The position numbers and the translations under genes are program-made. Below, in pieces: positions 24,871-45,633 of a DNA stretch of 50,448 nt; position 1 is the first letter of the stretch, and the number at the start of each line of letters is the position of its first letter. Source of the DNA: Fibrobacter sp. Its GTDB lineage: Bacteria; Fibrobacterota; Fibrobacteria; Fibrobacterales; Fibrobacteraceae. The DNA lies in assembly GCA_012511955.1 (NCBI GenBank), contig JAAZFC010000019.1:1-50448 (forward strand), given 5' to 3'. The notes beneath the pieces were generated by a model. The model saw only the letters and a program-made list of their open reading frames with translations, searched no databases and was not told the DNA's origin.

Positions 24871-27800
24871 GTGAATAAAACAAATACTATCTCCGCTCCT
24901 TTTTCTGAACGCCTAATTTATCCTTTATTTGCACTTTCTGGAATTTCCGGATTAATTTATGAAGGTACTTGGGCTCGTTACTTAAAATTATTTCTCGGCC
25001 ATTCTAGCTATGGACAAATTTTAACCCTATGTATTTACATGGGCGGTCTAGGCATTGGTTCTTTTATTGCATCACGCACCCTTAAATATGTTAAGAGACC
25101 TTTGCGAGCTTACGCTATTACCGAATTTGCCATCGGAATCAGTGGTTTACTGTATCACAACCTGTATGAATTTATCACCGAATGGTTTTATAATGCAGCT
25201 TGGTCGGCACAACTGACCACCCAACAGGCAGAAGTTGCTAAAATAGTGCTGTCGGTGATTACCACAACCCCCACAGCCATTATGTTGGGGCTAACCTTCC
25301 CTTGGATTGCTGCAGGATTGATGCGACGGCACCGTGATGATGGCCAAAGCTCATTGCCTTTGCTTTACTTTACCAACTCCTTAGGCGCTGCTGGAGGCTT
25401 ACTATTTGCTAGTTATTACCTAATCCCCCATTTAGGCACCCAAGGCACATTGTGGTTTGCTGCGCTTATAAACATAACCTTAGGCGTTTTCTTTGTAAGC
25501 ATAGATAGGAATTTACGTAAAATCCCCACAGAGAAATTTGCTGAAGTGCTAACTCCAAAACCATCTCCCACTCCCCTATTTAGTAATGCACCTGGAGAAA
25601 GGATCTGGATTTGGGTAGCCGCTATTACGGGTCTAACTTCATTTGTTTATGAAGTGGTTTGGATAAGATTGCTTTCTCTGATGATGGGCTCTAGCACTCA
25701 TTCTTTTGACCAGATGATTTCAGCCTTTATCTTTGGTATTGCCATAGGAAGTCTAGTTTCTAAGAAGTTGATGCGCAAAGATGTGCTGGTGTTTTTAGCA
25801 TTAGCACAAATATTTATGGGTTTTTTCGCAATATGTACCGTATATTTTCACACCTTCTTCTTTGAAGTGATGAACACCGCCAACTTGCTCTTTGGAGAAA
25901 CTTCCCAAGGTTATGTTGGTTGGAGCATTTTAAAATTCCTCGTGGCTATATCTTGGATGGTTCCTACATCGTTTTTTGCAGGAATGACTATGCCTTTTAT
26001 CACTTATTTGGCTAGTCAATTCACGAAATCAGAAGCTTCTGTGGGTAAAATTTACGGTTGGAACACCATTGGCTCCATTGTGGGTTCTGTTCTAAGCGGT
26101 TTGTACTTAATTCCTTTGCTACAACTCAAATGGTCCTTGGTCAGTGCAGCCATAGTAGATGTATTACTAGGAGCTGCTTTACTGCTAATTTGGAGACCCC
26201 AGTGGCGACGCAAAGGGCTATTTTGGGCTTTAACCTTAGCGGCTTGTTTTCCCGTTCTATTGGTAGATTTTGATACTTATATGGTAACCGCAGGGGTATT
26301 CCGTGGGCACAAAGAATATCACCGCGAAGAAAAAGTTACGGTTTACAACGGGCGTACAGCCACAATTAGCTTCCATGAAAGCCCAGTGCACTACTATGTA
26401 AAAACCAATGGAAAGCCCGATGCTTCTATACGCAAAGATCGCACCCAACCGGTGGAAGGCGATGAGCTCACTCAAGCCGCCACCGCTCTAATTCCCATGG
26501 GCACCCGCAATGAGCCTTACGAAGCGGCTATGGTGGGATTCGGCAGCGGTATGAGTGCCCACTATCTTTTAGCAGATCCGTTGCTACAACGTTTAGATGT
26601 AGTAGAAATTGAAAAGGAAATGCTTACTCTAGCCAATAAATTTAGACCCATAAATGACAGAGCTTTTGACGATCCTCGAGTAAATCTTTATGTGGATGAT
26701 GCTCGTACTTTTTTCCATACCCATGGCAAAAGCTACGATGTACTAGTTTCCGTCCCCTCAAATCCATGGGTGAGTGGAGTTTCCAGCTTATTTTCCATCG
26801 AGTTTTACCAACATATACAGAGATATCTAAAACCTGGTGGAACCATGGTTCAATGGTTGCAGTTATATGAGTTTGACAATGAGCTTATGCTACATATTTT
26901 ACAAGCTTTACACCAATCTTTTGAGCATGTAACGCTTTATAGCATCCCCGAAGAGCCTGATATTGTAATTTTAGCTTCCGATCAGCCTTTACGACAAAAA
27001 TATATAGATCGTTTTGCAAAAACTCCAGAAATTGTTGAAGAGTTTGAGAAAATGCACCGCCCTTGGTGGACTTTTGGCGAACAAAACTTTTTAGCTACTA
27101 CTAAATCTTTGGAACCTTTGCTAAAAGGAGTGCCTGCTAACTCAGAATATGTTCCCTGGGTAGATAACCGCGCTGAAGCTACGCGCTATACAATCTCCAC
27201 GGTGGGCTTAACCTACGCCCTAGATAGTTGTGAAATGTGCTGGCCAGACTTTTTAGAACACGAGAATTACGCCCCCCGTAAAGCATTTAAAAATTGGCTC
27301 AAAGGCACCCAAGCTCCAGACAGCTACTTGCGAGAAACAGTACGCCATCAGCTTAGCTTGCATCAAGAGTATATGAGTTTCCCCGATAGTGCTTTGCTTG
27401 ACACTAATCTTAGTGATCAAGCGCAAAGCGCGATAACTCCCACTGGGCGTGAACCTTCATGGTCTAAGTTTTGGAGAGATTTCCGCAAATTTATGGCTCA
27501 ATTGCCCTTTGATAGCACCCGCAGCTCTGTGCCTGAATACGCCTTGTTCAAACGCATGATTGCTGCCCAACAAGTTCCATTAGGAATCAGCGTAGAATTC
27601 GAGTTTTTAGACCATCTATGTCATGAACGCTATGCTGAAGCAGCGCGTATGTTACCAGCCCTAAGAGAAATATTTTACCTAATGAGTATGGATCAAATAT
27701 TCCTGCGCAATGTTGCTTTAGCAGCCTTTATGGCCAACGATACCCGGGAACTAAGAATAATCTTTGATGAGGCCATTATCCGAAGCCCTTATATGGATAA

Positions 27801-27882
27801 CGCTGAAAAGAGGTTAATAGCTAGTCTTTTAGGCAAGGATGCTGAAGCTATCCCCTTTAATACCCCACCTGATTACTATTAA
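24871..27882 (+). CDS. Fused polytopic membrane / spermidine synthase-like protein
   Basis: This 1003-residue protein has two parts. Residues 10-470 are membrane helices arranged as an internal duplication: GLIYEGTWARYLKLFLG near 28 and SFVYEVVWIRLLSLMMG near 258 occupy equivalent positions, each followed by a glycine-rich helix (GLGIGSF, GIAIGSL). Residues 540-700 are a spermidine/spermine synthase-type methyltransferase fold with VGFGSGMSAHYLL, DVVEIEKEM, VDDARTFF and SNPWVSGVSSLFS. The C-terminal 250 residues are soluble and unrecognised. Such fusions are common but their product is unknown; aminopropyl transfer is not assured. The start codon appears to be GTG with no clear ribosome binding site. 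Confidence 0.82.
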   Translation: MNKTNTISAPFSERLIYPLFALSGISGLIYEGTWARYLKLFLGHSSYGQILTLCIYMGGLGIGSFIASRTLKYVKRPLRAYAITEFAIGISGLLYHNLYEFITEWFYNAAWSAQLTTQQAEVAKIVLSVITTTPTAIMLGLTFPWIAAGLMRRHRDDGQSSLPLLYFTNSLGAAGGLLFASYYLIPHLGTQGTLWFAALINITLGVFFVSIDRNLRKIPTEKFAEVLTPKPSPTPLFSNAPGERIWIWVAAITGLTSFVYEVVWIRLLSLMMGSSTHSFDQMISAFIFGIAIGSLVSKKLMRKDVLVFLALAQIFMGFFAICTVYFHTFFFEVMNTANLLFGETSQGYVGWSILKFLVAISWMVPTSFFAGMTMPFITYLASQFTKSEASVGKIYGWNTIGSIVGSVLSGLYLIPLLQLKWSLVSAAIVDVLLGAALLLIWRPQWRRKGLFWALTLAACFPVLLVDFDTYMVTAGVFRGHKEYHREEKVTVYNGRTATISFHESPVHYYVKTNGKPDASIRKDRTQPVEGDELTQAATALIPMGTRNEPYEAAMVGFGSGMSAHYLLADPLLQRLDVVEIEKEMLTLANKFRPINDRAFDDPRVNLYVDDARTFFHTHGKSYDVLVSVPSNPWVSGVSSLFSIEFYQHIQRYLKPGGTMVQWLQLYEFDNELMLHILQALHQSFEHVTLYSIPEEPDIVILASDQPLRQKYIDRFAKTPEIVEEFEKMHRPWWTFGEQNFLATTKSLEPLLKGVPANSEYVPWVDNRAEATRYTISTVGLTYALDSCEMCWPDFLEHENYAPRKAFKNWLKGTQAPDSYLRETVRHQLSLHQEYMSFPDSALLDTNLSDQAQSAITPTGREPSWSKFWRDFRKFMAQLPFDSTRSSVPEYALFKRMIAAQQVPLGISVEFEFLDHLCHERYAEAARMLPALREIFYLMSMDQIFLRNVALAAFMANDTRELRIIFDEAIIRSPYMDNAEKRLIASLLGKDAEAIPFNTPPDYY

Positions 27883-27945: not shown

Positions 27946-29013
27946 TTAATTTAAATAAGAAGTTAAGCGAGCAGCCATTCCGTAATCACTGCTTTGATTG
28001 TTATTAAAGAAACCAAAGGAGATTCTAAAATTATTACCAATGTTTTTCTGAACAAATATGCTTCCTAATACCTCTTTTGCACTGCCAGTGGCATCAGGTT
28101 TGCGATCACTTAACCACTCTGCTTCTAAAGAGATTAGATCGAACAAGCGACCACCTTTAAGTTCAACACCGCCAGTTAAAGGAATACCAGCAATTTTGCC
28201 ATCACCAGAGATGCCAACAAATGCTAATTCACCCCAAAAACGCCACATGCCCCAAGGAACTTCAAAAAGCGCAGTAGCGTTATGTTGAGCTACAGCTTTG
28301 GAGTCACGAATAAAATCAAACATATTGTTTCTATATGTTAGGGTTATATTGAACATTTCTAAACTTGCTAATTCTGAAAATTTAAGCTGAGCTCTTAAGC
28401 TTCCTTTGTTCAAATTATCATCAGTGCTTTCTAAAGCGGCTTTAAAAGCTAAATTAGAATAAATGCTTTTGTTAATTTCAATGGCATTCATAGGCTTACC
28501 TGCAGCTAAAAAGGCTCCACCAGGAGCTTCGTCTGCATAGTTACCAAAAAATGCACCGCCACGGTCATTAGAGATGTAGCGACCGAGCTTAGTGTTTAAA
28601 AAAGAACCTTTATGCTCTACCCAAGCTTCGTATAGCACAAACTTATCGTAACGAGCATTGGTAACTTCTGCTTCTAAAGTTTCATTTTTAGTTACTAGCT
28701 GATAATTTTCCACAGCTAAATATGAAGTATCTCTTTGAGGAACAAATTCTGCCACCACATTATTTCCAAAATCTACTGGATAACCATAAACAGTGATTTT
28801 ACCATCGATTGCGTCGGATTTAGCAGTTAGGGAAACCACGCCGCGCCCCCACCATTCCTCAACATTATTGCCAGCAGGATCATCTATATTGTTCCATAGC
28901 ACTTTTTTCCCTTGAATATCCACACGAGCCGGTATGTCTATCTCCAACTTACCAGCTACTACCGTGCTAGCTAAGGCTAATAGGGTTAATGGTATAATTT
29001 TCTTAATATTCAA
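27946..29013 (-). CDS. Predicted outer-membrane beta-barrel (porin-like) protein
   Basis: The best start is a TTG at 29013, five bases after a GGAGG, giving MNIKKIIPLTLLALASTVVAG as signal peptide and about 355 residues in all. The GTG at 29025 would place the ribosome binding site inside the coding sequence. The mature part alternates polar and hydrophobic residues as in beta strands and repeats short turns with Gly, Asn and Asp. It ends in an aromatic-rich final segment (FRISFGFFNNNQSSDYGM, then ARLTSYLN), consistent with a porin-like barrel. No specific family was recognised and the cargo is unknown. It is preceded by 70 bp of AT-rich DNA. Confidence 0.72.
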   Translation of the reverse strand: MNIKKIIPLTLLALASTVVAGKLEIDIPARVDIQGKKVLWNNIDDPAGNNVEEWWGRGVVSLTAKSDAIDGKITVYGYPVDFGNNVVAEFVPQRDTSYLAVENYQLVTKNETLEAEVTNARYDKFVLYEAWVEHKGSFLNTKLGRYISNDRGGAFFGNYADEAPGGAFLAAGKPMNAIEINKSIYSNLAFKAALESTDDNLNKGSLRAQLKFSELASLEMFNITLTYRNNMFDFIRDSKAVAQHNATALFEVPWGMWRFWGELAFVGISGDGKIAGIPLTGGVELKGGRLFDLISLEAEWLSDRKPDATGSAKEVLGSIFVQKNIGNNFRISFGFFNNNQSSDYGMAARLTSYLN

Positions 29014-29086
29014 AATGACCTCCACTGTAATTGTTAGTGTTTTAATTAAGTTATAAATAATTCTACATATTTACATGAGTTTTAAC

Positions 29087-29779
29087 TTATTTAATACCGA
29101 ATTTAGTTTTTTTAGCAAAAGAACCAAATTTTTCTTGATAATTAAACAAGTTATTATATAAATCCAACATATCTTCTACCCATATAGGATCTCTTTCCCC
29201 AATAATTTCTGTGAATTGATGAACAGCTAAAATACTATTATAAGGGCCAGCCGCAGAACCTTTAACCTTAAATGATGTTTTAGGTTCACGCTGTTGTTTA
29301 TAAACCCTAGCCCAAGCTCTTTGGGAGCGCAACATTCTGCGCAGCCAAAGTTTGCGCACTTCAAAAATTATTCCTTGAGCCTCTTCTTTTTCTTCATTAT
29401 CTAAAAGTTTTTTAGCGTAAGATAACTGTTTTAAAAAACCATCTCGCTCAGGAATAGGGAGTAAAATTCTCCTTTGCTTAAAAGCATTTTCCAAGCGAGA
29501 AATTTCTTTTTGCAAATATTCAGCAGTCCACGGTGATTGCACAGGATTTACGCTTTGAGTTGTGGGCCGACTTGCTTTTTTATGATGTTTTTGCTGAAAT
29601 TTATGTAACCACTTTTCTACACGCTCTATGCTAATATCGCATTCAACATTTAAACCTAAAGTATGATATTCTGTGGCGCGTTTAAGCATAAAATTGGGGT
29701 AGGCAAAACGCCACCAAGGCAATGACAAGCTCTGGTGTTCTTGAACTATTTTTTGCTTTAAACTTTCAATTCTTTCCAT
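29087..29779 (-). CDS. Unrecognised protein, last gene of the stator-like operon
   Basis: The ATG at 29779 (MERIESLKQKIVQ) overlaps the end of the upstream OmpA-type gene by 14 bp and gives 230 residues; an upstream in-frame start at 29821 is less likely. There is no signal peptide or membrane helix. The sequence is rich in Lys, Arg, Glu and Trp and mostly helical, with charged heptad-like stretches such as YLQKEISRLENAFKQRRIL near residue 95 and KLWLRRMLRSQRAW near 145. It is predicted to be cytosolic. I do not recognise a family. Its tight coupling suggests it works with the channel and OmpA proteins. Confidence 0.75.
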   Translation of the reverse strand: MERIESLKQKIVQEHQSLSLPWWRFAYPNFMLKRATEYHTLGLNVECDISIERVEKWLHKFQQKHHKKASRPTTQSVNPVQSPWTAEYLQKEISRLENAFKQRRILLPIPERDGFLKQLSYAKKLLDNEEKEEAQGIIFEVRKLWLRRMLRSQRAWARVYKQQREPKTSFKVKGSAAGPYNSILAVHQFTEIIGERDPIWVEDMLDLYNNLFNYQEKFGSFAKKTKFGIK

Positions 29780-30431
29780 AAACAGAATCCATGGTTGATT
29801 CGTTTTGACGCAAAGGTGCAACGCTAATTTCTACTCTTCTATTTAATTGGCGATTTTCGGCACTGGTATTAGGATAGCGGGGGTGAAACTCACCAAAGCC
29901 CGCCGCAAAAATTCGCTGGCTAGGATAACCATTAGCGATAAGGGATTTTACTACGGTGGTAGCTCTTTCTGCCGATAATTCCCAATTTGTATAAGTGGCA
30001 GACCTAATGGGATTATCATCGGTATAACCAGCCACCATAATCACTTCTCCCGTGTCCAAAACATCGAGTAAGCCAACTCCTATAAGCTTTATAACCGAGC
30101 TTCCCTGGGATGTTAATTGCGCACTACCGGTGGGAAAAAGCAAGGAAGCTTGGATTTGGATATTGCCATCTTCTAAGGCTATTAATCCGCTTTCTAAGGG
30201 CGCTTTTAAACTTTGAGAAAGCAACGCATTGCGTTCTTGGGCTATTTTGCGCACTTGTTCCTGACATGAAAGCACTTCTTGCTCCGTGCGGGTAAGATCT
30301 TGATCTTTCTGTTCTTTTAAAGTAGCCATAGCCACAAAAGCCAAGATAAAAAGAGAAAGTAACCCTACGGTTAAATCGGTAAAACCTAACCAGCTACCAC
30401 TTTCTTCTTGATTTTTCAACTTAATTCGCAT
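29766..30431 (-). CDS. MotB-like OmpA-family stator protein
   Basis: This 221-residue protein has the layout of MotB/ZorB-type stator subunits: a short cytosolic N-terminus, one membrane helix at about residues 17-38 (FTDLTVGLLSLFILAFVAMA) and a coiled linker. An OmpA peptidoglycan-binding domain from about residue 90 contains LFPTGSAQLTSQG, VAGYTDDNPI, NWELSAERATTVV, AAGFGEFHPRYPN and NRRVEISV. The aspartate at residue 19, at the start of the helix, is where MotB carries its proton-binding Asp. The start forms TAATG with the upstream MotA/ExbB-like gene, so the two are almost certainly partners in one complex. Confidence 0.88.
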   Translation of the reverse strand: MRIKLKNQEESGSWLGFTDLTVGLLSLFILAFVAMATLKEQKDQDLTRTEQEVLSCQEQVRKIAQERNALLSQSLKAPLESGLIALEDGNIQIQASLLFPTGSAQLTSQGSSVIKLIGVGLLDVLDTGEVIMVAGYTDDNPIRSATYTNWELSAERATTVVKSLIANGYPSQRIFAAGFGEFHPRYPNTSAENRQLNRRVEISVAPLRQNESTMDSVYGKN

Positions 30432-32029
30432 TATTGCTCCGCAGTACTAGAACGAATTTGCTCCATTAATTCCAACATTATTTCTTGGCTACGCAAGGCA
30501 TTTTCTTCCAATAACTCAGTGGTCTTTTCCGTGAAAGATTCTAAGACTATTTGAATTTGTTCTACGCTGTGGGCCGGACCATTTTCTCCGCTAGATTTTT
30601 GAGAAAGTTGCTGCAATAATCCCTCTATGCCTTGGTTAAACAACTCCAAAGAGGCTTGTAATTCCGATTGATTGGTGCGCATCAGAGCAGCGGTCTCCCC
30701 TACTCCTTCGTGAAGCTGAGTGCTGATATTTTGTTCCATTTCCATGCGAGAATCCATTTGTGCTACTAAGGAACTTTGCCTGCTTAAAAGATCGTTAGTG
30801 CTCGCGCTAAGTTCACCAAAAGATTGTTGTATGTTTTGCGCAAGCTGTTCTATGGATTGCGTGCTAGAATCAATATTTTGATCAATTTCTTTCTGCGCAT
30901 TTTGCGAAATTTCTTTAGCTGTATTGTCTAAATTGGCCAAAATTTGTTGCAAATTAGTGCCTAAGGACTCTTGTAAAGCTCCCACGCTTTGCTCCACACT
31001 GCTCCACGCATTCTGTGCGTTTTGCGCCAAATCATTTTGCCAATCCCTTTGCTGGTTCGCTTGATTTTCCAACCAATTTTCCCATAAACTATGCAATTCC
31101 CCAGAGTTTTGAGCTAAAATCTTTTCGCTTTGAGTTACAATTTCTTGCATATTTTGCAAATTAGCACTTAAGTTTTCTTGAAGTTCTTTTTGTACATCGC
31201 CACTGATTTTTTCCCAGGAAGCATTCATGGTACCGCCTAGTTCTTCAGCGATTTTTTCTAAGGAGTCTTGCAGCATGACCACAGAACTTTGATTTTGCTC
31301 ATTTAAATCTGCCCGCACCGCCACCAAAAGTTCTTTAAACTCCGACCAATAAGCATCTTTTTCATCTGTGGATTGCTGATAATCAGCTTGCATTTGAGGA
31401 ATTAATTTAAACTGGGTGTATTCTTCTACATCGGCCATAAAAAGCATTTGCCTATTCACCAACAAACTATGACTAATATTTAGGAAAAGCGCAGCTATTA
31501 AACCGGCAAAGCTAGTGCCGAAAATCCCCATCATAGAAGAAAAAATATTTTCGATGGCGCTTATGGTTTGGGATGTTTGACCGGAGTCTAAAGAACCGCC
31601 CGCATTGGAAATAGCCACCATTAAACCGTAAAAAGTTCCTGCTAAGCCCAGTAAAATAACTACTCCCCCAGCAGAACGCCCTAAATTCACCGATGACCGA
31701 GCGGATTGCAATTCAGCAAAAATTCGCGAATCTAAGTTTTGCTTAGCGGCAAAGATTTCTTTAATTTTTTTAACTCGGTCTGCCAAAATACTAGACTCAG
31801 CAATATTGTTGTAACTAGAAGTTTTTGCATCTTTAAGCAATAGTTTTTGTCGATCCAAATATATGGCTGTTTTACGATATTTGATCATAGAAACAATAAA
31901 AACTAAAATAATTGCCACTATGATAATCCAACCAAACAAAGGTGGAGCAAAATGCCCCGCGGCAGCTATTAAAACCACCAAGCCAAAAATCATAAGCAAT
32001 AAAATATTTGTTGATGCTTTAGGAATCAT
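30431..32029 (-). CDS. MotA/TolQ/ExbB-like channel protein with long helical tail
   Basis: Of 532 residues, the first 50 hold two membrane helices (ILLLMIFGLVVLIAAAGHF; GWIIIVAIILVFIVSMI). Two more lie at about 125-200 with the family hallmarks VVILLGLAGTFYGLMVA and MMGIFGTSFAGLIAALFL. From about residue 230 to the end is roughly 300 residues of Gln, Asn, Ser and Glu-rich helical repeats (ENLSANLQNMQEI, QKEIDQNIDSSTQSIEQLAQ), predicted to project into the cytosol as a long coiled tail. This channel-plus-tail design is shared with ZorA of Zorya anti-phage systems, and distinguishes it from plain ExbB or TolQ. It overlaps the upstream gene by 11 bp. Confidence 0.85.
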   Translation of the reverse strand: MIPKASTNILLLMIFGLVVLIAAAGHFAPPLFGWIIIVAIILVFIVSMIKYRKTAIYLDRQKLLLKDAKTSSYNNIAESSILADRVKKIKEIFAAKQNLDSRIFAELQSARSSVNLGRSAGGVVILLGLAGTFYGLMVAISNAGGSLDSGQTSQTISAIENIFSSMMGIFGTSFAGLIAALFLNISHSLLVNRQMLFMADVEEYTQFKLIPQMQADYQQSTDEKDAYWSEFKELLVAVRADLNEQNQSSVVMLQDSLEKIAEELGGTMNASWEKISGDVQKELQENLSANLQNMQEIVTQSEKILAQNSGELHSLWENWLENQANQQRDWQNDLAQNAQNAWSSVEQSVGALQESLGTNLQQILANLDNTAKEISQNAQKEIDQNIDSSTQSIEQLAQNIQQSFGELSASTNDLLSRQSSLVAQMDSRMEMEQNISTQLHEGVGETAALMRTNQSELQASLELFNQGIEGLLQQLSQKSSGENGPAHSVEQIQIVLESFTEKTTELLEENALRSQEIMLELMEQIRSSTAEQ

Positions 32030-32939
32030 ATTTACCTCTTAAACTACTTGCAGGACTCTGAAACAGATCCAATTGTCCTGCAGAAAAACCTCGTAAAAAC
32101 AAAGTCCACTTATTGTAATACCATTCGTCACTATGACTAATTAAACCTTCTAAATAATCACAAAAATCATGTAAAAAAGCTAAAAAACCCGTCTCCCAAA
32201 CACCGGTGGGATTCCAGATAGATCCAATTTGGCGAGTAGCCGCATCGGCGCTAGCAAAGCTAGTTTTTTTTCTTGATTCACTTTTAAAAGCATTGCTAAA
32301 ATATCTAAAAGCTATGGTACTAATTCCATCGCGAAATGTTTTGAATATTCCGATTTCACTTTCGCGCATTCCCGCTTCAAAAGATGGCAAAACTTTAGAC
32401 AAAGGACTATTTACAGACTCTTGATGCCACTCAGCCACTAAGCGTTCTTGAATATGCAAAATGCGACTAAAATGCATTACCAAAAGTTTTTCAGCATCCC
32501 CCACCATTAAATGCAAAGTTTCAAAATAAAAATCTTTGATTTGTTGTTCCGATGTACCTAAATTAAAAAACCACCCAGAATCTGCTTTTTGTAGCCAATT
32601 GCCTTGCTGTAATTGTGGAGTTAAAGTTTTTAAAGTATAGCGTTGATGCCATTTATCTCTAAATTCACAACTTTTTTGAGAAAATTCTTTTTGTAAGGCA
32701 GGAAACAAATCTTGGGCAAGCTCCCAAGCTCCTTCGCTACGAGAAACATATTCACCGCTTCCATAACTCTGTTCTTGCTCTAAACTGGCGTTGATATGCT
32801 CTTGTAAAATCACTGTCCAAGCGCTAGACATGCCAGTGGCAAACTTGCCTAGCACATCTTCACGAATAGGACGACTAGGCAAAAGATTTATACTTTTGCC
32901 CGTCATTTTTCTTATGGCTCTACGAAATGCTTCTTTCAT
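32019..32939 (-). CDS. Unrecognised cytosolic protein in the stator-like operon
   Basis: This 306-residue protein has no signal peptide and no membrane helix. It begins with a basic segment (MKEAFRRAIRKMTGKSINLL) and is rich in Trp, Phe and Ser. Features include WHQRYTLKTLTPQL, a helical middle (LLVMHFSRILHIQERLVAEW) and an aromatic C-terminal region (WYYNKWTLFLRGFSAGQLDL). I do not recognise a family. Its size does not fit ZorC or ZorD of Zorya. It overlaps the MotA-like gene by 11 bp, which argues for a functional link to the channel complex. Confidence 0.75.
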   Translation of the reverse strand: MKEAFRRAIRKMTGKSINLLPSRPIREDVLGKFATGMSSAWTVILQEHINASLEQEQSYGSGEYVSRSEGAWELAQDLFPALQKEFSQKSCEFRDKWHQRYTLKTLTPQLQQGNWLQKADSGWFFNLGTSEQQIKDFYFETLHLMVGDAEKLLVMHFSRILHIQERLVAEWHQESVNSPLSKVLPSFEAGMRESEIGIFKTFRDGISTIAFRYFSNAFKSESRKKTSFASADAATRQIGSIWNPTGVWETGFLAFLHDFCDYLEGLISHSDEWYYNKWTLFLRGFSAGQLDLFQSPASSLRGKYDS

Positions 32940-32977
32940 AATTTTCGTTACAAGCCTAAATATAACTACCTAGCTGT

Positions 32978-33664
32978 TTAAAAACGAGATTCGATGTGTT
33001 CTAAAACATGTTGGGGGATTTTGACCTTGCTGCTATCAAGTTTCTTTTCATCTTTTTGCCAGATATTATCCTCTCCCACTATCTCAAAACCACCAGCTTC
33101 AAAAAAAGCAAAAGCATTATTTTCCACTTTGCTTTTATCTATAAATAATTTATTGCTGCGCACATCTAAAGCGTAACGGTTACCTTCAAATAGCAAGCTT
33201 TCTAGTTTAATTCCCGTGTGATTTCTTAATTGTAAACCATAAAAACCATTGCGAAACACAGTGTTCTTAATGTATCCCACTGAGCCATTAAGCACATTGC
33301 GGAAAGCATTGTTCACCACTAAATAGTTTATAGCTAAAGTGTTGCTTCCAGTGTTAAAATCCATACCTATCCATGAATCGGTGGAATCCATAGTGGAAAT
33401 TTCTACAGGATGTGTCGGGCTTCCATTAACAATCACCGTACCTTGGCAATAAATTTTATGATAACCATCAATAATAATTTTAGTTCCAGCCTCAATTATC
33501 AAAGTATCACTGGGTTTTTGTGCTAAACTGCGGTTTATTATCCATGGACTAGATTTTGCCTGCAACACAACTTTATTTTGCAAAGAACTTAAAGTTCCTC
33601 CCCACAATTGCGCAAATACAATACAAACTAAAATAAACGCATATTTTAAATAGGAATTATTCAA
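32978..33664 (-). CDS. Exported parallel beta-helix protein
   Basis: This gene of 228 codons starts with TTG, overlapping the previous stop as TTGA. The N-terminus (YLKYAFILVCIVFAQLWGG) is a signal peptide. The mature part shows short repeated strands with Asn and Gly turns (GTVIVNGSPTHPVEI, VNNAFRNVLNGSVGYIKNTV, NRYALDVRSNKLFIDKSKV), typical of a right-handed beta-helix. No pectate-lyase catalytic residues are apparent, so a structural or binding role is more likely than enzymatic. It is second in the operon, 38 bp before the next gene. Confidence 0.75.
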   Translation of the reverse strand: MNNSYLKYAFILVCIVFAQLWGGTLSSLQNKVVLQAKSSPWIINRSLAQKPSDTLIIEAGTKIIIDGYHKIYCQGTVIVNGSPTHPVEISTMDSTDSWIGMDFNTGSNTLAINYLVVNNAFRNVLNGSVGYIKNTVFRNGFYGLQLRNHTGIKLESLLFEGNRYALDVRSNKLFIDKSKVENNAFAFFEAGGFEIVGEDNIWQKDEKKLDSSKVKIPQHVLEHIESRF

Positions 33665-34500
33665 AAATCACTCTCCATACTTATGCTTTGCAAGACTCTC
33701 ATGGGGCCTAAATTTGAGGTTTGGGGCATGGAATTTATTTGGATCACACCAGACACATCTAAATTGGCTTTTACTATCACCCCTGCAGTAGCATTAAATA
33801 AGATTTCTCCACTTCCCAAAATAAAATCATCACTGGTCAACTTTATCTGTTTTTCAGACAATTCATCTACTTTGTACTTAACATTCATACGAATACGCAC
33901 AAACTTTTGCTGATTACGGTCATAAACATCATTAATCTCAAACCACTTATAAATAAATGATTTTTTCTCATCTTCGGTGAAATAATGCTGTCTTTCCCAA
34001 GTGTAACCCATATAAACAGGTGCTGCAGGCAAAACTGGTTGAATTTTTAACAATAAACGGCGCAAATCAATGTCAGTGTGCTCTAAATCGGGCACCATCT
34101 CTGTCAAACTGACATCGTGCATTTCGCCAGCAGTGTTCATTTTAAACTGAAACTCCTGTTGCAATAAATATCTTTCAATATGATTGCACTCTTCCACGGA
34201 TTTTTCATCAGAAGTATAATAAATAGAATCAGGCAGAATTTGATAGCGACCACTTCCATCATCATAGGCCATAACTAAACTCGATTTCACCCTAGCTTTT
34301 AAAAGAGAATTTAACACCGAAGGCTGAGTAGAATCCTCACTGGTAATAACTTTCATCTGGGACCTTAACACATACTCCTGGTCAGACATATTGTGAATAT
34401 TAAAAGCCAAGTTTAATTTCTTTTCTTCACAAGAAAAAAAGAACACCAGTAAAATCAAGAGAGTGTATTTGCTATAAAATTTCAATTTTTGTATAAACAT
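33661..34500 (-). CDS. Predicted lipoprotein, first gene of the stator-like operon
   Basis: The ATG at 34500 (MFIQKLKFYSKYTLLILLVFF) gives 279 residues; a TTG at 34518 is in frame but less likely. The hydrophobic start ends in a lipobox, FFSC, followed by EEKK, so the mature protein is probably a lipid-anchored envelope protein. The body is beta-rich, with GRYQILPDSIYYTSDE, MGYTWERQHYFTEDEKK and MNVKYKVDELSEKQIKL; no family was recognised. It begins the operon, divergent from aconitase with 124 bp between the starts, where the operon promoter must lie. Confidence 0.78.
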   Translation of the reverse strand: MFIQKLKFYSKYTLLILLVFFFSCEEKKLNLAFNIHNMSDQEYVLRSQMKVITSEDSTQPSVLNSLLKARVKSSLVMAYDDGSGRYQILPDSIYYTSDEKSVEECNHIERYLLQQEFQFKMNTAGEMHDVSLTEMVPDLEHTDIDLRRLLLKIQPVLPAAPVYMGYTWERQHYFTEDEKKSFIYKWFEINDVYDRNQQKFVRIRMNVKYKVDELSEKQIKLTSDDFILGSGEILFNATAGVIVKANLDVSGVIQINSMPQTSNLGPMRVLQSISMESDF

Positions 34501-34624
34501 TAATTTACCTAAAAGCAAAATAAGAAAAAACTATAAAAAAGGTATATTTCATTTAAAATATTATACAGAACAGTTTTAATATAGTCTCAAATTTGCGCTA
34601 AAAAGCATAAAACAAGGATTGATC

Positions 34625-39328: not shown

Positions 39329-40183
39329 TCACAAGTTATCAATATAAAACTCTTGATCTAAGCCTTTTCGCTGGGCGTGTATTATTGTGACTAAGTTACG
39401 CAACTGAGGTTCGGCGATGGTTTCAGGATTAAAATTCATAGTTTGCACATGGTAGCGTTCCCTAAGCCCATAATTTTGGATGTCTTTTTCCATGCTAGGA
39501 GGTATAAAAAATTGCGCTCGCGAACCCAAATGCTTTTTATATTCATGCAAATATATGCCTATACCCGCCAAGTCAAAATCACCAAAATGCAAGTAGGGAT
39601 TCGATATTTTTTGCAACCAACTAATAACATCGCGATTTTGATTTTGAGGGTAGCGAGAAATAAACAAAGGCTTGAACTGAGAAAATAGATGTTTTTGCTC
39701 TTTGATGTGAATGAAATTTTGCGCATTTTCCATTCCAATCACTGTTACATCGGACGGTATGGTAAAAGTCTCAAAATCTGCAACAAAAACAAAACTCCCT
39801 GGCTTGGGGTTTAGCATAAAATCTTCTTGCCTTAAACTCGCCAAAATAGGCTCATAACAATTAACTAAAAAACCCGTAAAAGCGCGCCCCTTGGCCAATT
39901 TAGAATTTCCAGCTACTTTTACCATTGCTCCCCGCGAAGCTTCGGTTTCTAAAGCAGCTACATATTCCTCCAAATCATAAATTTGCATTTGATTAGCTAA
40001 ATAATCATCCAAAGCCTGACCATTAATTAGCTCCACCGTTTTGCGGTGTTTTCCTGTGATAAAAACGATATTTTCTTGATATAACTCTGTGATTAAAGCA
40101 CTTTTTGCGTAGCTGTAAGCCAACTTGGCACCATTTTTAAGCTCAGCTAAAATTTTAGCTCTTTTTAGAGATAGTTTTGTCAA
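39329..40183 (-). CDS. jetD: Wadjet nuclease subunit JetD
   Basis: JetD is the TOPRIM/topoisomerase VI-like subunit that cuts circular plasmid DNA after extrusion by the Wadjet SMC complex. The 284 residues carry a helical N-terminal region and a C-terminal TOPRIM-like (DUF2220-type) domain. The metal-binding Glu152 is in VIGMENAQNF, and Asp202 and Asp204 are in HFGDFDLAG. The protein is shorter than the longest JetD forms. It starts at a TTG overlapping the jetC stop (TTGA), so translation is coupled. Last gene of the operon. Confidence 0.9.
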   Translation of the reverse strand: MTKLSLKRAKILAELKNGAKLAYSYAKSALITELYQENIVFITGKHRKTVELINGQALDDYLANQMQIYDLEEYVAALETEASRGAMVKVAGNSKLAKGRAFTGFLVNCYEPILASLRQEDFMLNPKPGSFVFVADFETFTIPSDVTVIGMENAQNFIHIKEQKHLFSQFKPLFISRYPQNQNRDVISWLQKISNPYLHFGDFDLAGIGIYLHEYKKHLGSRAQFFIPPSMEKDIQNYGLRERYHVQTMNFNPETIAEPQLRNLVTIIHAQRKGLDQEFYIDNL

Positions 40184-43100
40184 AATGTACGCTCTCCATG
40201 TACTTTTACTAAACGACTGACCCGAGTCACATATTTCGTAGCATCGGCAGCAGAAGCTTCTTTAGACAGCTTATAGGTGTATTTATAATCTATGGCATTT
40301 TGACTGGTAGGTGAACCATTTATTAACAAGATATTGCGCTCATTGGCGAAACGCAAAATTCCCTGGACATTGTTGGGATGCAAGCGTCCAATTTCATCCA
40401 TCATGCAATGTAATTTAAAATCTTTAAACTTACGCGATGCACTGTCCTTAAAAACATTTAACAACAAAATGTTAATCATTGCTTTTACCAGCACATCAGT
40501 TCCTTCACTACCCACATTGGACAACTTTTCTACCCAACCGGAATCGTTATCGTTTTCGACAATTCTAAACTGCAAATCAAAGGATTCAGACAAGGTTAAA
40601 GTGGTATTTTTAGTGCGTTCTAGCTCTTTGATCAGTTGATTTAACAACTCCACCGCCTGGTGATTACTGGTACTACTTTCAGCGGAGGTAAACAAGTTGT
40701 TTTCTCCCAAAATCAAGTTATGTTCATCGTAAAACTCTTTAATTTTAAGCAATAATTTTACAATGGAGTTAGAACTTTTTTGAGTGCGCATTTCCATTTC
40801 TTTTATGGCTTGTACAAAGTTTTTAGCCACAAAATCATCATTAATTTTTTTGATAACTTTTTCAATCTCGGCTTCTTTAGAGCTTAATTCAGTGGTTTCT
40901 TTGGCTATTTGTTGCACAATATTGGCAAAACGCTCATTAACCCGCTTCTCATATTCATGGATTTTATCTTCTTCAATAAATTCTTTTAGACTATGAGCAA
41001 AATCCATAAATTCTCTGTCGCTGACAAATTTGGTGGCAAATTTAAAAATATTGCGCTCTCCAAAGTTCCCCGTAAACCTGTTAATTACTTGCTGCATTTC
41101 TTTAAAATTGTCTATAACTTGATAATGCCTATCTTTGATTTCAGCAATTATCTTTTGGGCACTAAGATCTTCCATATCTGTAGAAGCTGAAACTTTATCA
41201 TTTAGCTCACAAAACTCATAAAGTTCAGATTTTTTGAATTTTTCAAACTCCGCTTCATCTGTGGCAAAAACAGTTAAAACGCTATTTAATTTCTTCACCA
41301 AAGCATCTTGTTTAGCAAACTTGGTTTCCATATTTGCCAAAGCTAATTCTTGCTCAGTTACTAGCTGTTTATGTTTTATTTCTAGGCTATTGCGCTGGGC
41401 ATTTAGCTCGGGCACTAAGTCAAAAAGCTCACGCTTATCTTTTTCATATTCAATTACCAAGCGTTCATTTTTTTGAATGGTCCCAAGTAAATTGTCAATT
41501 TCAAGCAAACTTTTTTCTATTTGTTCCAAACGAATTACATTGGCACCGCGAGAAGCCAGCTCAGAGCTCTCTTGGCTTTGCAATTCGGCGAGGTGCTGCT
41601 TACACTCAGCGCTATTTTTATGAATTTCACTTTCTAAATGCTCAATCTTTATCGCAAAATCCTGTTCCAAGTCTTGAATTTCACTATCTCGTCGCTTTTT
41701 ATTGACTGTAACCTTACGTTTTAAATTGATACCTAAATTTTCCAACAGCTTATCTTTATGCAGCCGCTCTGCGGTAAGCTTTTCTAACTCAGCCTCTAAC
41801 CCACTGGAAACTGCTTGCTTTTCTTCTACACTCCGTTGCTTCCACTCGTGCAATTCAACATTTTTTTGCTTAATTCTGACCTTGCTGCGTTCTATATTGT
41901 ACTCATTTTCTGCTATGGCTTCTTGAAGTGCTTTAATTTGCTTTTGATATTTGTTTTTTAAGCGCAACAAACCTGCGTCATGGTCTGCCCAATACTCTAG
42001 TTCCAATTGTTCTTGGCGCTGCAATTCAGTTTGCAAATCAGTAATTTCTTCTTTAAATTCAGCTAAAGTCTTAACTTTATTTGGCACTTGTGAGAGATCT
42101 AATTCCACTCCATAAAAATTAGGATTAGTGGTATTTAACAAACGGGGATTAAGATCGGTACTGAATAATACATCGCTCCGATCTATTACTTTAGCAATGG
42201 TATTTTCCCATTGGGGATAATTATCGTTGAGCCAACCATATAAAGCAGTGCTACTTTGGGCTATTTTAGCTTCTAAACTTTTTATTTGTGCATTTAATTC
42301 ACTTTGCTCGGCTTGGGATTTCTCTACTTGGGTGTCAAATTTAAATTGTTGTTGAGTCTGTTCATTTTCCCAAGCTTTACGAGTGTTTTGCATGGTGTTT
42401 TTACAATTGAAAACTATAGATTTAGCAGTAGAAACATCTTTTTCCAACTTTTGTAAATCGCCTTGACAATTTTTAATTTCTTCTTGGAAAAAAGTGCGAT
42501 ATTTTAACTCAGCCTGCTGATTTTTAACTTGATTAATAGACTCAACAACTTGAGCAACAACTTCTGTGGCCAAATTAATTTCACTCGTGCTATCCTGCTG
42601 AATTTGTTCCAACAAGGCCTGATAATTTTCTGTTATTTCGTGAATTTTCTTAGCTTTAATAGCATTTGTTTCATTAATTTTGGCACGGTGTTGATTGTTA
42701 AATTCTTGCTCTCGATTAGAAATTTGCATCATCAAAGCTTGATATTTTTGCGTTAATTCGGCAAATTCAGTTGTTAACAGATTTTTCTCATCAAGTAAAG
42801 CCTTTTGGTTGGCTAACAACGAATCTTTTTGTGCCATTTGCTCTAAAATAGCAGTGATATCTTGCAGTTCATAAGCATTTTGTTTTTCTTTGGCTTTTTG
42901 GAGTTCCTTTTTCAGATAATCTAAATCAGAAATTAACTTTTGCTCACGCTTTTTATGATTTTCCTGCATATTGTCGCGACTTATTGCCAACTTGCGCAAC
43001 ACTTCGCTTTCGCGCTTAAGTTCTGATGCTAGCAATGGTTTTTGCTCATTTACCCAAACCATACGCATTAAAAGTTGCCGTATAAAGCCTTTTTTATCGC

Positions 43101-43878
43101 GACTTAAAAAATTTAGCACCCTATATTTTTCTATAACTCGATCAGCTTGGTTTTTGACCAATATTTGCCCATTACGCTGTTTTTTAAACCAAATTTGAAT
43201 ATCATTTATTTGGGTTTGAAAATCTCGCAAATGATTATGGGCATAATTTGCTAAATCTATTTTAAACTCATCTTCGGACAAAGAATTTATGATAGTGTCT
43301 TTAATGAACTTCGCCTCTAAATTAGAGTTTAAAAACACATTTTGAATAGTGCGAGGAATATTTTGAAACTGCTTGCTTTCAATAAGAGCATATTTACGAA
43401 AATTAGGTGCTAAAGATTTATTATCTCCGTAAATTATTTTGCGAAATTCTTCATAACCTGTTATAAGTTTAGAGTAATGAATATGGCGGCCAAAACCAGC
43501 TCTAATATCCTCCCAAGTGGCCAAAGCCCTGTTATCGGTACTTATAAATAATTCTTTTTGATAATTATGCTCAAAAAACCTAAAAGCAACTTTGCCACTG
43601 ACTTTGTATGCCAACACGCAAAATTTCATTTCATCTTTAGAGACCTCATAAATTATATAAGAATTTTGATAAGGAAAATAATATTCATCAAAACTCATTT
43701 TTTCGCGAGGAATCCCTAGTTTAGTTTTGTTGGCATTATAAAAAAATAAAATGGCCCGCAACAAAGTACTTTTACCCACTCCCTGGGTGCCAATAAAGTG
43801 CACATTACCATCTAATTCTATTTCCGCATAATTTACTGCTGCACTATTTATAAAAACTATTTTATTTAGGTATCTCAT
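40180..43878 (-). CDS. jetC: Wadjet SMC-like ATPase JetC
   Basis: JetC is a MukB-like SMC protein that extrudes DNA loops with JetA and JetB. In 1232 residues the Walker A motif GTQGVGKST is at 30-38. Long coiled-coil segments fill residues 290-500 and 600-950, and a central hinge-like region lies near 540-610. The C-terminal head has the signature-like LSNVGSEGTDVLVKAM and the Walker B LHCMMDEIGRLHPNN. All ATPase motifs look intact. The 17-bp overlap with jetB and the order A-B-C-D match known Wadjet operons. The subtype (II or III rather than I) is my impression from subunit sizes. Confidence 0.93.
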   Translation of the reverse strand: MRYLNKIVFINSAAVNYAEIELDGNVHFIGTQGVGKSTLLRAILFFYNANKTKLGIPREKMSFDEYYFPYQNSYIIYEVSKDEMKFCVLAYKVSGKVAFRFFEHNYQKELFISTDNRALATWEDIRAGFGRHIHYSKLITGYEEFRKIIYGDNKSLAPNFRKYALIESKQFQNIPRTIQNVFLNSNLEAKFIKDTIINSLSEDEFKIDLANYAHNHLRDFQTQINDIQIWFKKQRNGQILVKNQADRVIEKYRVLNFLSRDKKGFIRQLLMRMVWVNEQKPLLASELKRESEVLRKLAISRDNMQENHKKREQKLISDLDYLKKELQKAKEKQNAYELQDITAILEQMAQKDSLLANQKALLDEKNLLTTEFAELTQKYQALMMQISNREQEFNNQHRAKINETNAIKAKKIHEITENYQALLEQIQQDSTSEINLATEVVAQVVESINQVKNQQAELKYRTFFQEEIKNCQGDLQKLEKDVSTAKSIVFNCKNTMQNTRKAWENEQTQQQFKFDTQVEKSQAEQSELNAQIKSLEAKIAQSSTALYGWLNDNYPQWENTIAKVIDRSDVLFSTDLNPRLLNTTNPNFYGVELDLSQVPNKVKTLAEFKEEITDLQTELQRQEQLELEYWADHDAGLLRLKNKYQKQIKALQEAIAENEYNIERSKVRIKQKNVELHEWKQRSVEEKQAVSSGLEAELEKLTAERLHKDKLLENLGINLKRKVTVNKKRRDSEIQDLEQDFAIKIEHLESEIHKNSAECKQHLAELQSQESSELASRGANVIRLEQIEKSLLEIDNLLGTIQKNERLVIEYEKDKRELFDLVPELNAQRNSLEIKHKQLVTEQELALANMETKFAKQDALVKKLNSVLTVFATDEAEFEKFKKSELYEFCELNDKVSASTDMEDLSAQKIIAEIKDRHYQVIDNFKEMQQVINRFTGNFGERNIFKFATKFVSDREFMDFAHSLKEFIEEDKIHEYEKRVNERFANIVQQIAKETTELSSKEAEIEKVIKKINDDFVAKNFVQAIKEMEMRTQKSSNSIVKLLLKIKEFYDEHNLILGENNLFTSAESSTSNHQAVELLNQLIKELERTKNTTLTLSESFDLQFRIVENDNDSGWVEKLSNVGSEGTDVLVKAMINILLLNVFKDSASRKFKDFKLHCMMDEIGRLHPNNVQGILRFANERNILLINGSPTSQNAIDYKYTYKLSKEASAADATKYVTRVSRLVKVHGERTF

Positions 43879-44434
43879 TTTCTATATCTTCGGGAATGTG
43901 GATAATATTGATGATATCTTTAAGATAATTAAAAGAAGTTAATACCTTGTAAGTTTCAGAAATTTCATTTTCTAGGGCTACGAAATTGTCTTTCTCTAGT
44001 TTTTCTATGACTTTTTTAACTCTTTCAGAATAGTTTTTTTTAGCGATACCCAACTTACTTAAATTTTCTAATTTGGATTTCAAATCAGCATTGTTTTTAA
44101 GCTGATTTACAATATCTGCTGGTGAAAACCGAAAACCCACATCAAAAGCGGAATCAAAGCTTTTAAAAAAATCTAAATAATCAATCCAAGCAAAAGCATT
44201 ATCCAGTTTTCGTTCTAAATCTGCATTTTGCTCTACCCTACTGAAATAAAAATATTCATTGCCTTGTTCTAGCACATAGTTGATTTGTTTAAAATATTGA
44301 TACAAGTGTTCAAAAGTACTCTGATCTTCTAGCACCCTGTACAGTTTGCTATTGTTCTCGTCAGGGCTGTTTGAACAAATAAATAACCCCCTACGCAACA
44401 CATCAAATATTTCAGCAGTATATTTAGACATCAT
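43862..44434 (-). CDS. jetB: Wadjet MukE-like subunit JetB
   Basis: JetB is the small winged-helix accessory protein of the Wadjet condensin (DUF4194-like, equivalent to MukE). The 190 residues start with YTAEIFDVLRRGLFICSN and contain a helical region and a loop with FSRVEQNADLERKLDNAFAW. The assignment rests mainly on position and size between jetA and jetC, plus the general fold pattern. It begins 2 bp after jetA and ends within jetC. Confidence 0.82.
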   Translation of the reverse strand: MMSKYTAEIFDVLRRGLFICSNSPDENNSKLYRVLEDQSTFEHLYQYFKQINYVLEQGNEYFYFSRVEQNADLERKLDNAFAWIDYLDFFKSFDSAFDVGFRFSPADIVNQLKNNADLKSKLENLSKLGIAKKNYSERVKKVIEKLEKDNFVALENEISETYKVLTSFNYLKDIINIIHIPEDIENEIPK

Positions 44435-44436
44435 AA

Positions 44437-45633
44437 TTACCTAGCCATTACAACAGCATGTTCAATACCATTAAATATGCGATATTCGTTGGTTACAAGT
44501 AAATCATTTTCAAAAAGTGAAATCACTTGACAAAAAATAGTAACTCGTTCTGCAAAATCTACCTCTTTAAAGAAGTCGTACTTGTAAATAAAACTAAATA
44601 AATCATCACTGGTTGCTAAAAAAGTATTTTTAACTTCTGCGTAATTAATCATCACCTCTTTTTCAACTATAGCTGTTAAATAATCACTGGCAATGGGTGC
44701 TGCTAGTTCGTTTTTGAGAGGCGGAAGATGCTTTTTGCTATGCGCTAAGCGCTTAATAAGTTCAAAACTTTTATCGTCCAAACGCAAAAAATCCAATGAT
44801 AATTTTAGAGGTTCTATGCGCCGCGGTTCATATAATAGTGCATTTTGCTGAGACAAAACCTGCCTCAAATTGCTTTGGGATTCTATTAAAAAATGATCTT
44901 TAAGGTACTTAAGTTTTCGCAATTTTTCTAAAAACTCGCCCTGAATTTTGATCTGATGTAAGTAATCGATGATTTGCTTTTCTATTTCAATCAAGTTGTG
45001 TGAACATTCATTTAAGCGTTGCTTAAGCTCAATTATTTCGCGGTTTAGCTCCACATCTAAAGCACGATTAAAAAAAGTAAGCTCATCTTCATTCACTAAT
45101 TTTAAGCTTTGATCTATTAAGCTTTTAATAATTGTGCGTTTTTCATCGAAGTTATTAAGCTTTAATTGTTTGATTTTATAATTTATTTCGTTTTTAAAGG
45201 TGTTTTCCACATTGCGGCGCAAATCTATGGCGCTTTTTATGGTGATTATCCCTATTTTGCGTAGGGTCTTTTTGATAAACTTCAAATAGCCATGCTTGCG
45301 ATATTGGTTGCTTTCATTTAGATAATAAACAATATTTTCTTTAATATGCTTAATGTTGTCATCAATATACGCTAAATTAATTTCTTCGTTTATATCTAAA
45401 ACTTGTTCAAAAAACTCTAAATAGAGGTCGTCTAGTTCTAAAACACCTGCATTTTCCCTAACTACACCTTTACCCAGCAAAAAAGCCAAACGATGTTCTT
45501 CGTAATTTAGCAACTCCAAAGCATCACTATATTTGTAATCCATGGACTTGCGTTTACTAAACATTTCAGCAATTAGTCTAGTTTCGCGGTTTAAAGCGGA
45601 AAATAGTTCTTTTAGATCATAAAAAGCACTCAT
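44437..45633 (-). CDS. jetA: Wadjet kleisin-like subunit JetA
   Basis: JetA is the MukF-like kleisin that bridges the JetC heads. The 398 residues begin FYDLKELFSALNRETRLIAEMF and contain a long helical middle (KQRLNECSHNLIEIEKQIID). The C-terminal segment is winged-helix-like (FIYKYDFFKEVDFAERVTIF). It is shorter than DUF3375-type JetA of type I systems. Identification depends partly on the operon context, which is unambiguous. An AhpD-like gene ends 33 bp upstream on the same strand. Confidence 0.82.
   Translation of the reverse strand: MSAFYDLKELFSALNRETRLIAEMFSKRKSMDYKYSDALELLNYEEHRLAFLLGKGVVRENAGVLELDDLYLEFFEQVLDINEEINLAYIDDNIKHIKENIVYYLNESNQYRKHGYLKFIKKTLRKIGIITIKSAIDLRRNVENTFKNEINYKIKQLKLNNFDEKRTIIKSLIDQSLKLVNEDELTFFNRALDVELNREIIELKQRLNECSHNLIEIEKQIIDYLHQIKIQGEFLEKLRKLKYLKDHFLIESQSNLRQVLSQQNALLYEPRRIEPLKLSLDFLRLDDKSFELIKRLAHSKKHLPPLKNELAAPIASDYLTAIVEKEVMINYAEVKNTFLATSDDLFSFIYKYDFFKEVDFAERVTIFCQVISLFENDLLVTNEYRIFNGIEHAVVMAR

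What the first reader, a model, noticed from the sequence alone, without database searches (positions are those of the whole stretch)
29087..34500. Six-gene operon built around a MotA/MotB-like stator with a long cytosolic tail
A MotA/TolQ/ExbB-like channel with about 300 residues of helical tail and a MotB-like OmpA protein with an Asp at the helix start are translationally coupled (TAATG). This pair resembles ZorA and ZorB of the Zorya anti-phage systems, in which an ion-driven motor signals to cytosolic effectors. Here the partners are not ZorC, D or E: two unrecognised cytosolic proteins (306 and 230 residues), an exported beta-helix protein and a lipoprotein. Tight overlaps imply one machine spanning both membranes. 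It could be a new motor-coupled defence system or an envelope force-transduction device.
Basis: partly seen in the sequence, partly recalled or inferred. Interest (0 to 1): 0.8.

Follow-up and report, generated by a model that had tools for sequence, protein, structure and literature searches.

The report
Core Zorya-like motor operon in Fibrobacter
Fibrobacter and its relatives carry, as a fixed part of the genome, an operon for an ion-driven membrane motor built like the Zorya type III anti-phage system, and in some relatives the same partner proteins persist with the motor missing, which suggests an everyday cell-envelope role rather than an optional immune system.

Summary
The six-gene operon is real: lipoprotein, beta-helix, 306-aa protein (G), ZorA-like channel with long tail (A), ZorB-like OmpA protein (B), 230-aa protein (F), minus strand, A/B joined by TAATG. 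Gene order G-A-B-F is that of Zorya type III (DUF3348-ZorA-ZorB-DUF2894). B matches ZorB3 strongly, A matches solved ZorA, F shares DUF2894's C-terminal motif. G has no demonstrable similarity to DUF3348.

The distribution is unlike a typical defence system. Of 137 Fibrobacterota genomes, G is present in 101 of the 102 of this class and in none of 35 outside it. Its tree follows taxonomy, and tadA usually lies upstream. B occurs in 82 of those genomes, never without G. The other 19 lack B; the loci examined keep G, F and a membrane-anchored tail with A's C-terminal domain but no channel. The spacer there can be a coil or include PKIEI-type repeats.

Best reading: a vertically inherited Zorya-III-like stator attached to a G-tail-F envelope module that can exist without it. 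An anti-phage role is possible but not indicated. Function is inferred, not shown. New variant of a known kind.

The parts
33661..34500 (-). Gene 1: exported lipoprotein, 279 aa from ATG at 34500 (285 aa from TTG at 34518); no family above cut-off
   Evidence: ORF; Pfam DUF6263 only 0.015; lipobox in 62 of 65 relatives; also upstream of G in stator-less genus g15
32978..33664 (-). Gene 2: exported protein, weak beta-helix, 228 aa
   Evidence: ORF; Pfam Beta_helix 0.0016, under cut-off; found in 64 of 66 Fibrobacteraceae loci
32019..32939 (-). Gene 3 'G': helical cytosolic protein, 306 aa, in the position of DUF3348 in Zorya III
   Evidence: no family; class-wide gene; AF2 pLDDT 79, no PDB fold match; DUF3348 similarity not significant
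30431..32029 (-). Gene 4 'A': ZorA-like stator subunit, 532 aa
   Evidence: PADLOC ZorA3 4.9e-14; solved ZorA matched at 2e-14
31385..32029 (-). A residues 1-215: membrane/channel domain, including GGVVILLGLAGTFYGLM and SMMGIFGTSFAGL
   Evidence: invariant columns G122-M137 and F163-G176
30713..31384 (-). A residues about 216-439: helical spacer of variable length
   Evidence: 218 to 373 residues between channel and C-terminal domain in 64 relatives
30434..30712 (-). A residues about 440-532: conserved C-terminal domain (NQSE...ENA..QEI)
   Evidence: conserved also in channel-less homologues
29766..30431 (-). Gene 5 'B': ZorB-like, one TM helix plus OmpA peptidoglycan-binding domain, 221 aa; its start overlaps the A stop codon (TAATG)
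   Evidence: PADLOC ZorB3 2.7e-45; hhalign vs ZorB3 7e-38; TAATG
30375..30377 (-). Codon of Asp19 of B, expected ion-carrying residue
   Evidence: conserved in Fibrobacteraceae B and Zorya-III ZorB
29087..29779 (-). Gene 6 'F': cytosolic helical protein, 230 aa from ATG at 29779
   Evidence: PADLOC ZorF3 (DUF2894) 0.019; hhalign vs DUF2894 4.4e-5 against controls of 0.1 or more; AF2 pLDDT 79
29144..29248 (-). F C-terminal motif GPYNS...DPIWVEDMLDLYNNLF, shared with DUF2894 (AGPLNS...SPxYLxxF)

Best explanation
The operon encodes a Zorya-III-related, ion-driven inner-membrane motor that is a vertically inherited core trait of the Fibrobacterales, not an accessory island. Expected mechanism, by homology with solved ZorA5B2: five A subunits surround two B subunits; B's OmpA domains grip peptidoglycan; ion flow past Asp19 of B turns the A ring; and the bundled A tail carries the motion or a signal over about 220-370 residues to a conserved C-terminal domain, which docks the cytosolic proteins F and/or G. 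The exported lipoprotein and beta-helix protein act on the envelope side. Because G, F and the tail's C-terminal domain persist without the channel in two separate parts of the class tree, the cytosolic G-tail-F assembly would be the working unit and the motor an add-on that energises or gates it. Most likely role: a constitutive envelope-linked function (for example envelope-stress sensing or maintenance) rather than dedicated phage immunity. Shown: genes, order, homology of A and B (and of F's C-terminus), distribution, channel-less homologues, inheritance of G. Inferred: 5:2 assembly, ion flow, docking, role.
For: ZorA/ZorB type III matches; the four of B's plasmid best hits that I opened are DUF3348-ZorA-ZorB-DUF2894 operons; hhalign B 7e-38, A channel 9e-13, F C-terminus 4.4e-5; solved ZorA matched. 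Core and vertical: G in 101 of 102 class genomes and in none of 35 outside, a G tree that follows taxonomy, tadA upstream in 57 of 66 loci. Nested distribution: B in 82 genomes, always with G; 19 genomes with G and no B. Channel-less tails with the same C-terminal domain. Key residues kept: B D19, D138, R156. Present in genomes with and without FliG, so not a flagellar part.
Against: No experiment on any of these proteins. A Zorya III system from Stenotrophomonas does protect E. coli from phages (PMC8565338), so a core operon could still be defence. A Wadjet-like locus lies 4.8 kb away in this genome. G lacks demonstrable DUF3348 similarity, and the A-tail match to Zorya III tails is not significant (E 0.034 against controls of 0.047-0.24). 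Whether families f3-f5 lost the stator or never had it is unresolved.
Confidence: 0.55

Rival explanations
1. It is a working anti-phage system, a divergent Zorya type III: the motor senses envelope disturbance at phage entry and the tail activates F/G to stop infection. It happens to be fixed in this class.
For: Same gene order and A/B type as Zorya III; Zorya III protects E. coli (PMC8565338); a Wadjet-like locus nearby in this genome.
Against: Core, vertical, constant neighbour tadA, whereas the Zorya subtypes are described as differentially distributed, 'typical of anti-phage systems' (PMC11890865). No nuclease or other effector domain detected in G or F. Stator-less lineages keep the rest.
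Confidence: 0.25
2. It is a force-transducing machine for the cell surface, for example for cellulose adhesion or surface movement, with the beta-helix protein and lipoprotein as output parts.
For: Exported lipoprotein and beta-helix protein in the operon; F. succinogenes adheres to and degrades cellulose (PMC6851124); a 23.9-kDa inner-membrane OmpA-family protein, FSU_0151, changes in abundance with cellulose (PMC6851124, PMC4619616), but that it is this B is unconfirmed (size fits, pI mostly does not).
Against: The tail and its conserved domain point into the cytosol; G and F are predicted cytosolic and are the most widely conserved parts; FSU_0151 was lower, not higher, on cellulose.
Confidence: 0.15
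3. A/B are ordinary ExbB/TolQ or flagellar MotAB proteins in an unrelated operon.
For: MotA_ExbB and OmpA domains.
Against: B scores 152 bits to ZorB3 against 76 to ZorB1; A is the most divergent of six MotA/ExbB proteins of the genome (28 bits against 89-108); a long tail; present in genomes without FliG.
Confidence: 0.04

Closest known systems
Zorya type III (DUF3348-ZorA-ZorB-DUF2894; PMC8565338)
   Same: Gene order helical protein-A-B-F; ZorB3-type B; ZorA-type channel and long tail; F's C-terminal motif GPxN as in DUF2894; no ZorC/D/E
   Different: G has no demonstrable DUF3348 similarity; F matches DUF2894 only at the C-terminus; two exported proteins lie in the operon; core and vertical in a class; stator-less relatives exist. 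Naming: the text of PMC8565338 calls DUF3348 ZorF and DUF2894 ZorG, while the PADLOC model for DUF2894 is named ZorF3.
Zorya types I and II (ZorAB with ZorCD or ZorE)
   Same: ZorAB stator with cytosolic tail; solved ZorA structures match A
   Different: No ZorC, ZorD or ZorE in the operon; lower scores than type III for B
TolQR-Pal / ExbBD-TonB
   Same: MotA/TolQ/ExbB channel family; envelope coupling
   Different: No TolA/TonB-like partner, B is OmpA-type, long cytosolic tail
Flagellar MotAB
   Same: A/B stator with OmpA-type peptidoglycan-binding B
   Different: Present with or without flagellar FliG; no rotor in the operon

Membership tests
Zorya (any type) | ZorA-type MotA/ExbB channel with long cytosolic tail | tested here: met
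   PADLOC ZorA3 4.9e-14; solved ZorA 2e-14; but far below the NCBIfam ZorA cut-offs
Zorya (any type) | ZorB-type OmpA protein with membrane Asp and peptidoglycan-binding residues | tested here: met
   ZorB3 2.7e-45; D19, D138, R156 shared with 10 ZorB3
Zorya type III | DUF2894 protein downstream of ZorB | tested here: inconclusive
   C-terminal motif only: hhalign 4.4e-5, controls 0.1 or more; PADLOC 0.019
Zorya type III | DUF3348 protein upstream of ZorA | tested here: not met
   PF11828 over cut-off in 0 of 41 genomes; hhalign 0.025, not significant.
Zorya type III | Gene order helical-A-B-helical | tested here: met
Zorya type III | Protects against phages | not testable with these tools
   needs cloning and phage challenge
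Anti-phage defence system (as a kind) | Patchy, horizontally moving, in defence islands | tested here: not met
   core in class, tree follows taxonomy, tadA neighbour; but a Wadjet-like locus is 4.8 kb away in this one genome
ExbB/TolQ-Pal type | closest to housekeeping ExbB/TolQ | tested here: not met

The most novel reading that the evidence does not exclude
The G-tail-F assembly is an uncharacterised core envelope-linked machine of the class Fibrobacteria that can dispense with the ZorAB stator and may predate it. Zorya type III would then be one way of attaching a motor to such an assembly, i.e. a defence-associated motor system derived from, or repurposed as, housekeeping equipment, with natural motor-less versions as built-in controls.
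Probability: 0.3. Interest if true: 0.8.

Novelty: new variant of a known kind. Interest (0 to 1): 0.6.

Why it matters
Zorya motors are described as phage sensors that drive cytosolic effectors, and how the tail passes the signal on is open. Here nature supplies both versions of one operon: with the motor, and without it but with the same C-terminal tail domain and the same partners, on spacers as different as a coil and PKIEI-type repeats. This makes two questions directly testable: which part of the machine needs the motor, and whether a Zorya-like system can be a fixed housekeeping device. It also cautions against reading every ZorAB profile hit as defence.

Tried and rejected
DUF3348 homology of G: not shown. 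Tail C-terminal domain against Zorya III tails: aligned in register but not significant. Remnants of ZorA membrane helices in channel-less tails: none found, so gain versus loss outside Fibrobacterales stays open. PDB fold searches of G and F: no match at E <= 0.001. Apolipoprotein, tape-measure and similar matches of A: put down to helical, low-complexity composition. FSU_0151 of F. succinogenes as the S85 B: size fits, pI mostly does not, no proof. Testing whether Zorya III is core in Burkholderiaceae: not possible with the handles held. Promoter/terminator scan: no more promoter-like sites than chance.

Full report
OBSERVATION. The window lies in a Fibrobacteraceae genome of 2.68 Mb. Six minus-strand ORFs run from 34518 to 29087. 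A and B are joined by TAATG. A is a MotA/ExbB protein with a tail of about 317 residues; B carries an OmpA domain and a membrane Asp19; the first gene has a lipobox and the second a weak beta-helix match.

NEAREST RELATIVE. PADLOC ranks A with ZorA3 (4.9e-14) and B with ZorB3 (2.7e-45, 152 bits, against 76 for ZorB1). A profile of A matches the solved ZorA chains 8qyd and 8qyk at 2e-14 and 2e-13. Searching plasmids with B, the four best-hit regions I opened are all DUF3348-DUF802(ZorA)-OmpA(ZorB)-DUF2894, i.e. Zorya type III, in the same order as here. Profile comparison gives 7e-38 for B and 9e-13 for the A channel, and 4.4e-5 for the C-terminus of F against DUF2894 (unrelated and reversed controls 0.1 or higher). 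G against DUF3348 gives 0.025, which I do not count as evidence. So A/B are Zorya-III-like, F is probably DUF2894-related at its C-terminus, and G is unplaced.

CONSERVATION OF THE OPERON. One scan of 84,980 species genomes with the G family returned 66 loci, all Fibrobacterota; the scan patterns came from Fibrobacterales sequences, so this does not bear on distant relatives. In 60 of the 66 all six genes are present in order. Of the other six, five lack genes that would lie beyond or at a contig end; only L086 has room on both sides and lacks a recognisable beta-helix gene. In all, 27 of the 66 stretches were shortened by a contig end. Gaps are tiny (medians -4 to +9 bp). In 57 loci a tadA gene lies immediately upstream, median 46 bp. 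In the window itself the upstream neighbour is a divergent aconitase gene.

DISTRIBUTION. Of 137 phylum genomes at least 80% complete, G is found in 101: all members of the class (families f1-f4 in this set) except one 88%-complete MAG, and none of the 35 genomes outside the class. It is single-copy in nearly all: G101, a MAG, shows two full-length copies, and two MAGs in the genome-contig scan gave two loci each (L115/L124, L126/L128); the other doubled rows are split matches. B's membrane/linker region is found in 82 of these genomes, all with G; the 19 with G and no B are 7 of genus g6, 10 of family f3 and 2 of f4. Outside that set, g8 (G007) and f5 (G039) also show G without B beside it. 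The G tree follows the genome taxonomy and needs two changes of stator state: f1+f2 carry the stator, with one apparent loss in the g6+g8 clade, while f3-f5 either lost it or never had it. Long branches are flagged in that tree, so I rely on it for grouping only.

CHANNEL-LESS TAILS. In the stator-less loci examined the gene between G and F encodes one or two hydrophobic N-terminal stretches, a spacer, and the same C-terminal domain as A (NQ...GL..LL..L ... EN..R.QEIL.E). The spacer looks like a coil in f3-f5; in g6/g8 it includes repeats such as PKIEIPKIEIPKIE. Among stator-bearing A proteins the channel and the C-terminal domain are conserved while the spacer runs from 218 to 373 residues. 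The lipoprotein gene also precedes G in stator-less genus g15. Hence the C-terminal domain, G and F are the constant parts.

STRUCTURE. AlphaFold2 gives G as helical apart from a short hairpin (mean pLDDT 78.8, pTM 0.75) and F as all-helical (79.4, pTM 0.46); neither has a PDB fold match at E <= 0.001. No nuclease, helicase or other enzymatic family is detected in them.

HOW IT LIKELY WORKS. By homology with ZorA5B2, whose tail, ion flow and peptidoglycan binding are needed for defence (PMC11890865), the A ring should turn on ion flow past B Asp19 while B holds the cell wall, and the tail should pass this on to F/G. B keeps D19, D138 and R156. These steps are inferred. The core, vertical distribution with a constant neighbour argues for a constitutive role; PMC11890865 calls the uneven distribution of the Zorya subtypes typical of anti-phage systems. 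Against this stands the fact that a Zorya III system protects E. coli (PMC8565338). FliG is absent from many genomes with the operon, so it is not a flagellar part.

VERDICT. A real, conserved operon; a divergent, core, Zorya-III-like motor with natural motor-less relatives. It works like a Zorya stator as far as sequence can say, but it does not pass as a full type III member because the DUF3348 test failed. New variant of a known kind; the functional reading is a hypothesis.

Noticed in passing
window 39329-45633 (-): Wadjet/MksBEFG-like plasmid-defence operon: JetD/MksG-like (DUF7281), DUF3584 SMC-like JetC, MksE, and a 398-aa protein in the JetA/MksF position (no family match); about 4.8 kb from the operon with aconitase between.
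   Followed up: partly
L192:5728-10991, L194:3425-8465; related hits in G028, G032-G037: Five-gene operon apart from the usual flagellar FliG gene: a ~600-620 aa exported-looking protein with FliG_M and FliG_C domains (and a weak FliF_C match in one), a 359-374 aa protein without a family, a lipoprotein (TPR match in L192), and its own MotA and MotB. Looks like a non-flagellar rotor-stator set; no paper found. Five loci fetched, families checked in two.
   Followed up: partly
stator-less tails, e.g. L058:4974-5672, L061:5183-5860: The spacer between membrane helix and conserved C-terminal domain is partly made of PKIEI-type repeats in genera g6/g8.
   Followed up: partly
window 46352-50128 (+): 1258-aa protein with GLUG motifs and an M26-type N-terminal match, likely a surface protein.
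   Followed up: no
window 24871-27882 (+): 1003-aa membrane protein with a spermidine-synthase domain.
   Followed up: no
window 27946-29025 (-): 359-aa protein downstream of the operon with no Pfam, NCBIfam or PADLOC match.
   Followed up: no
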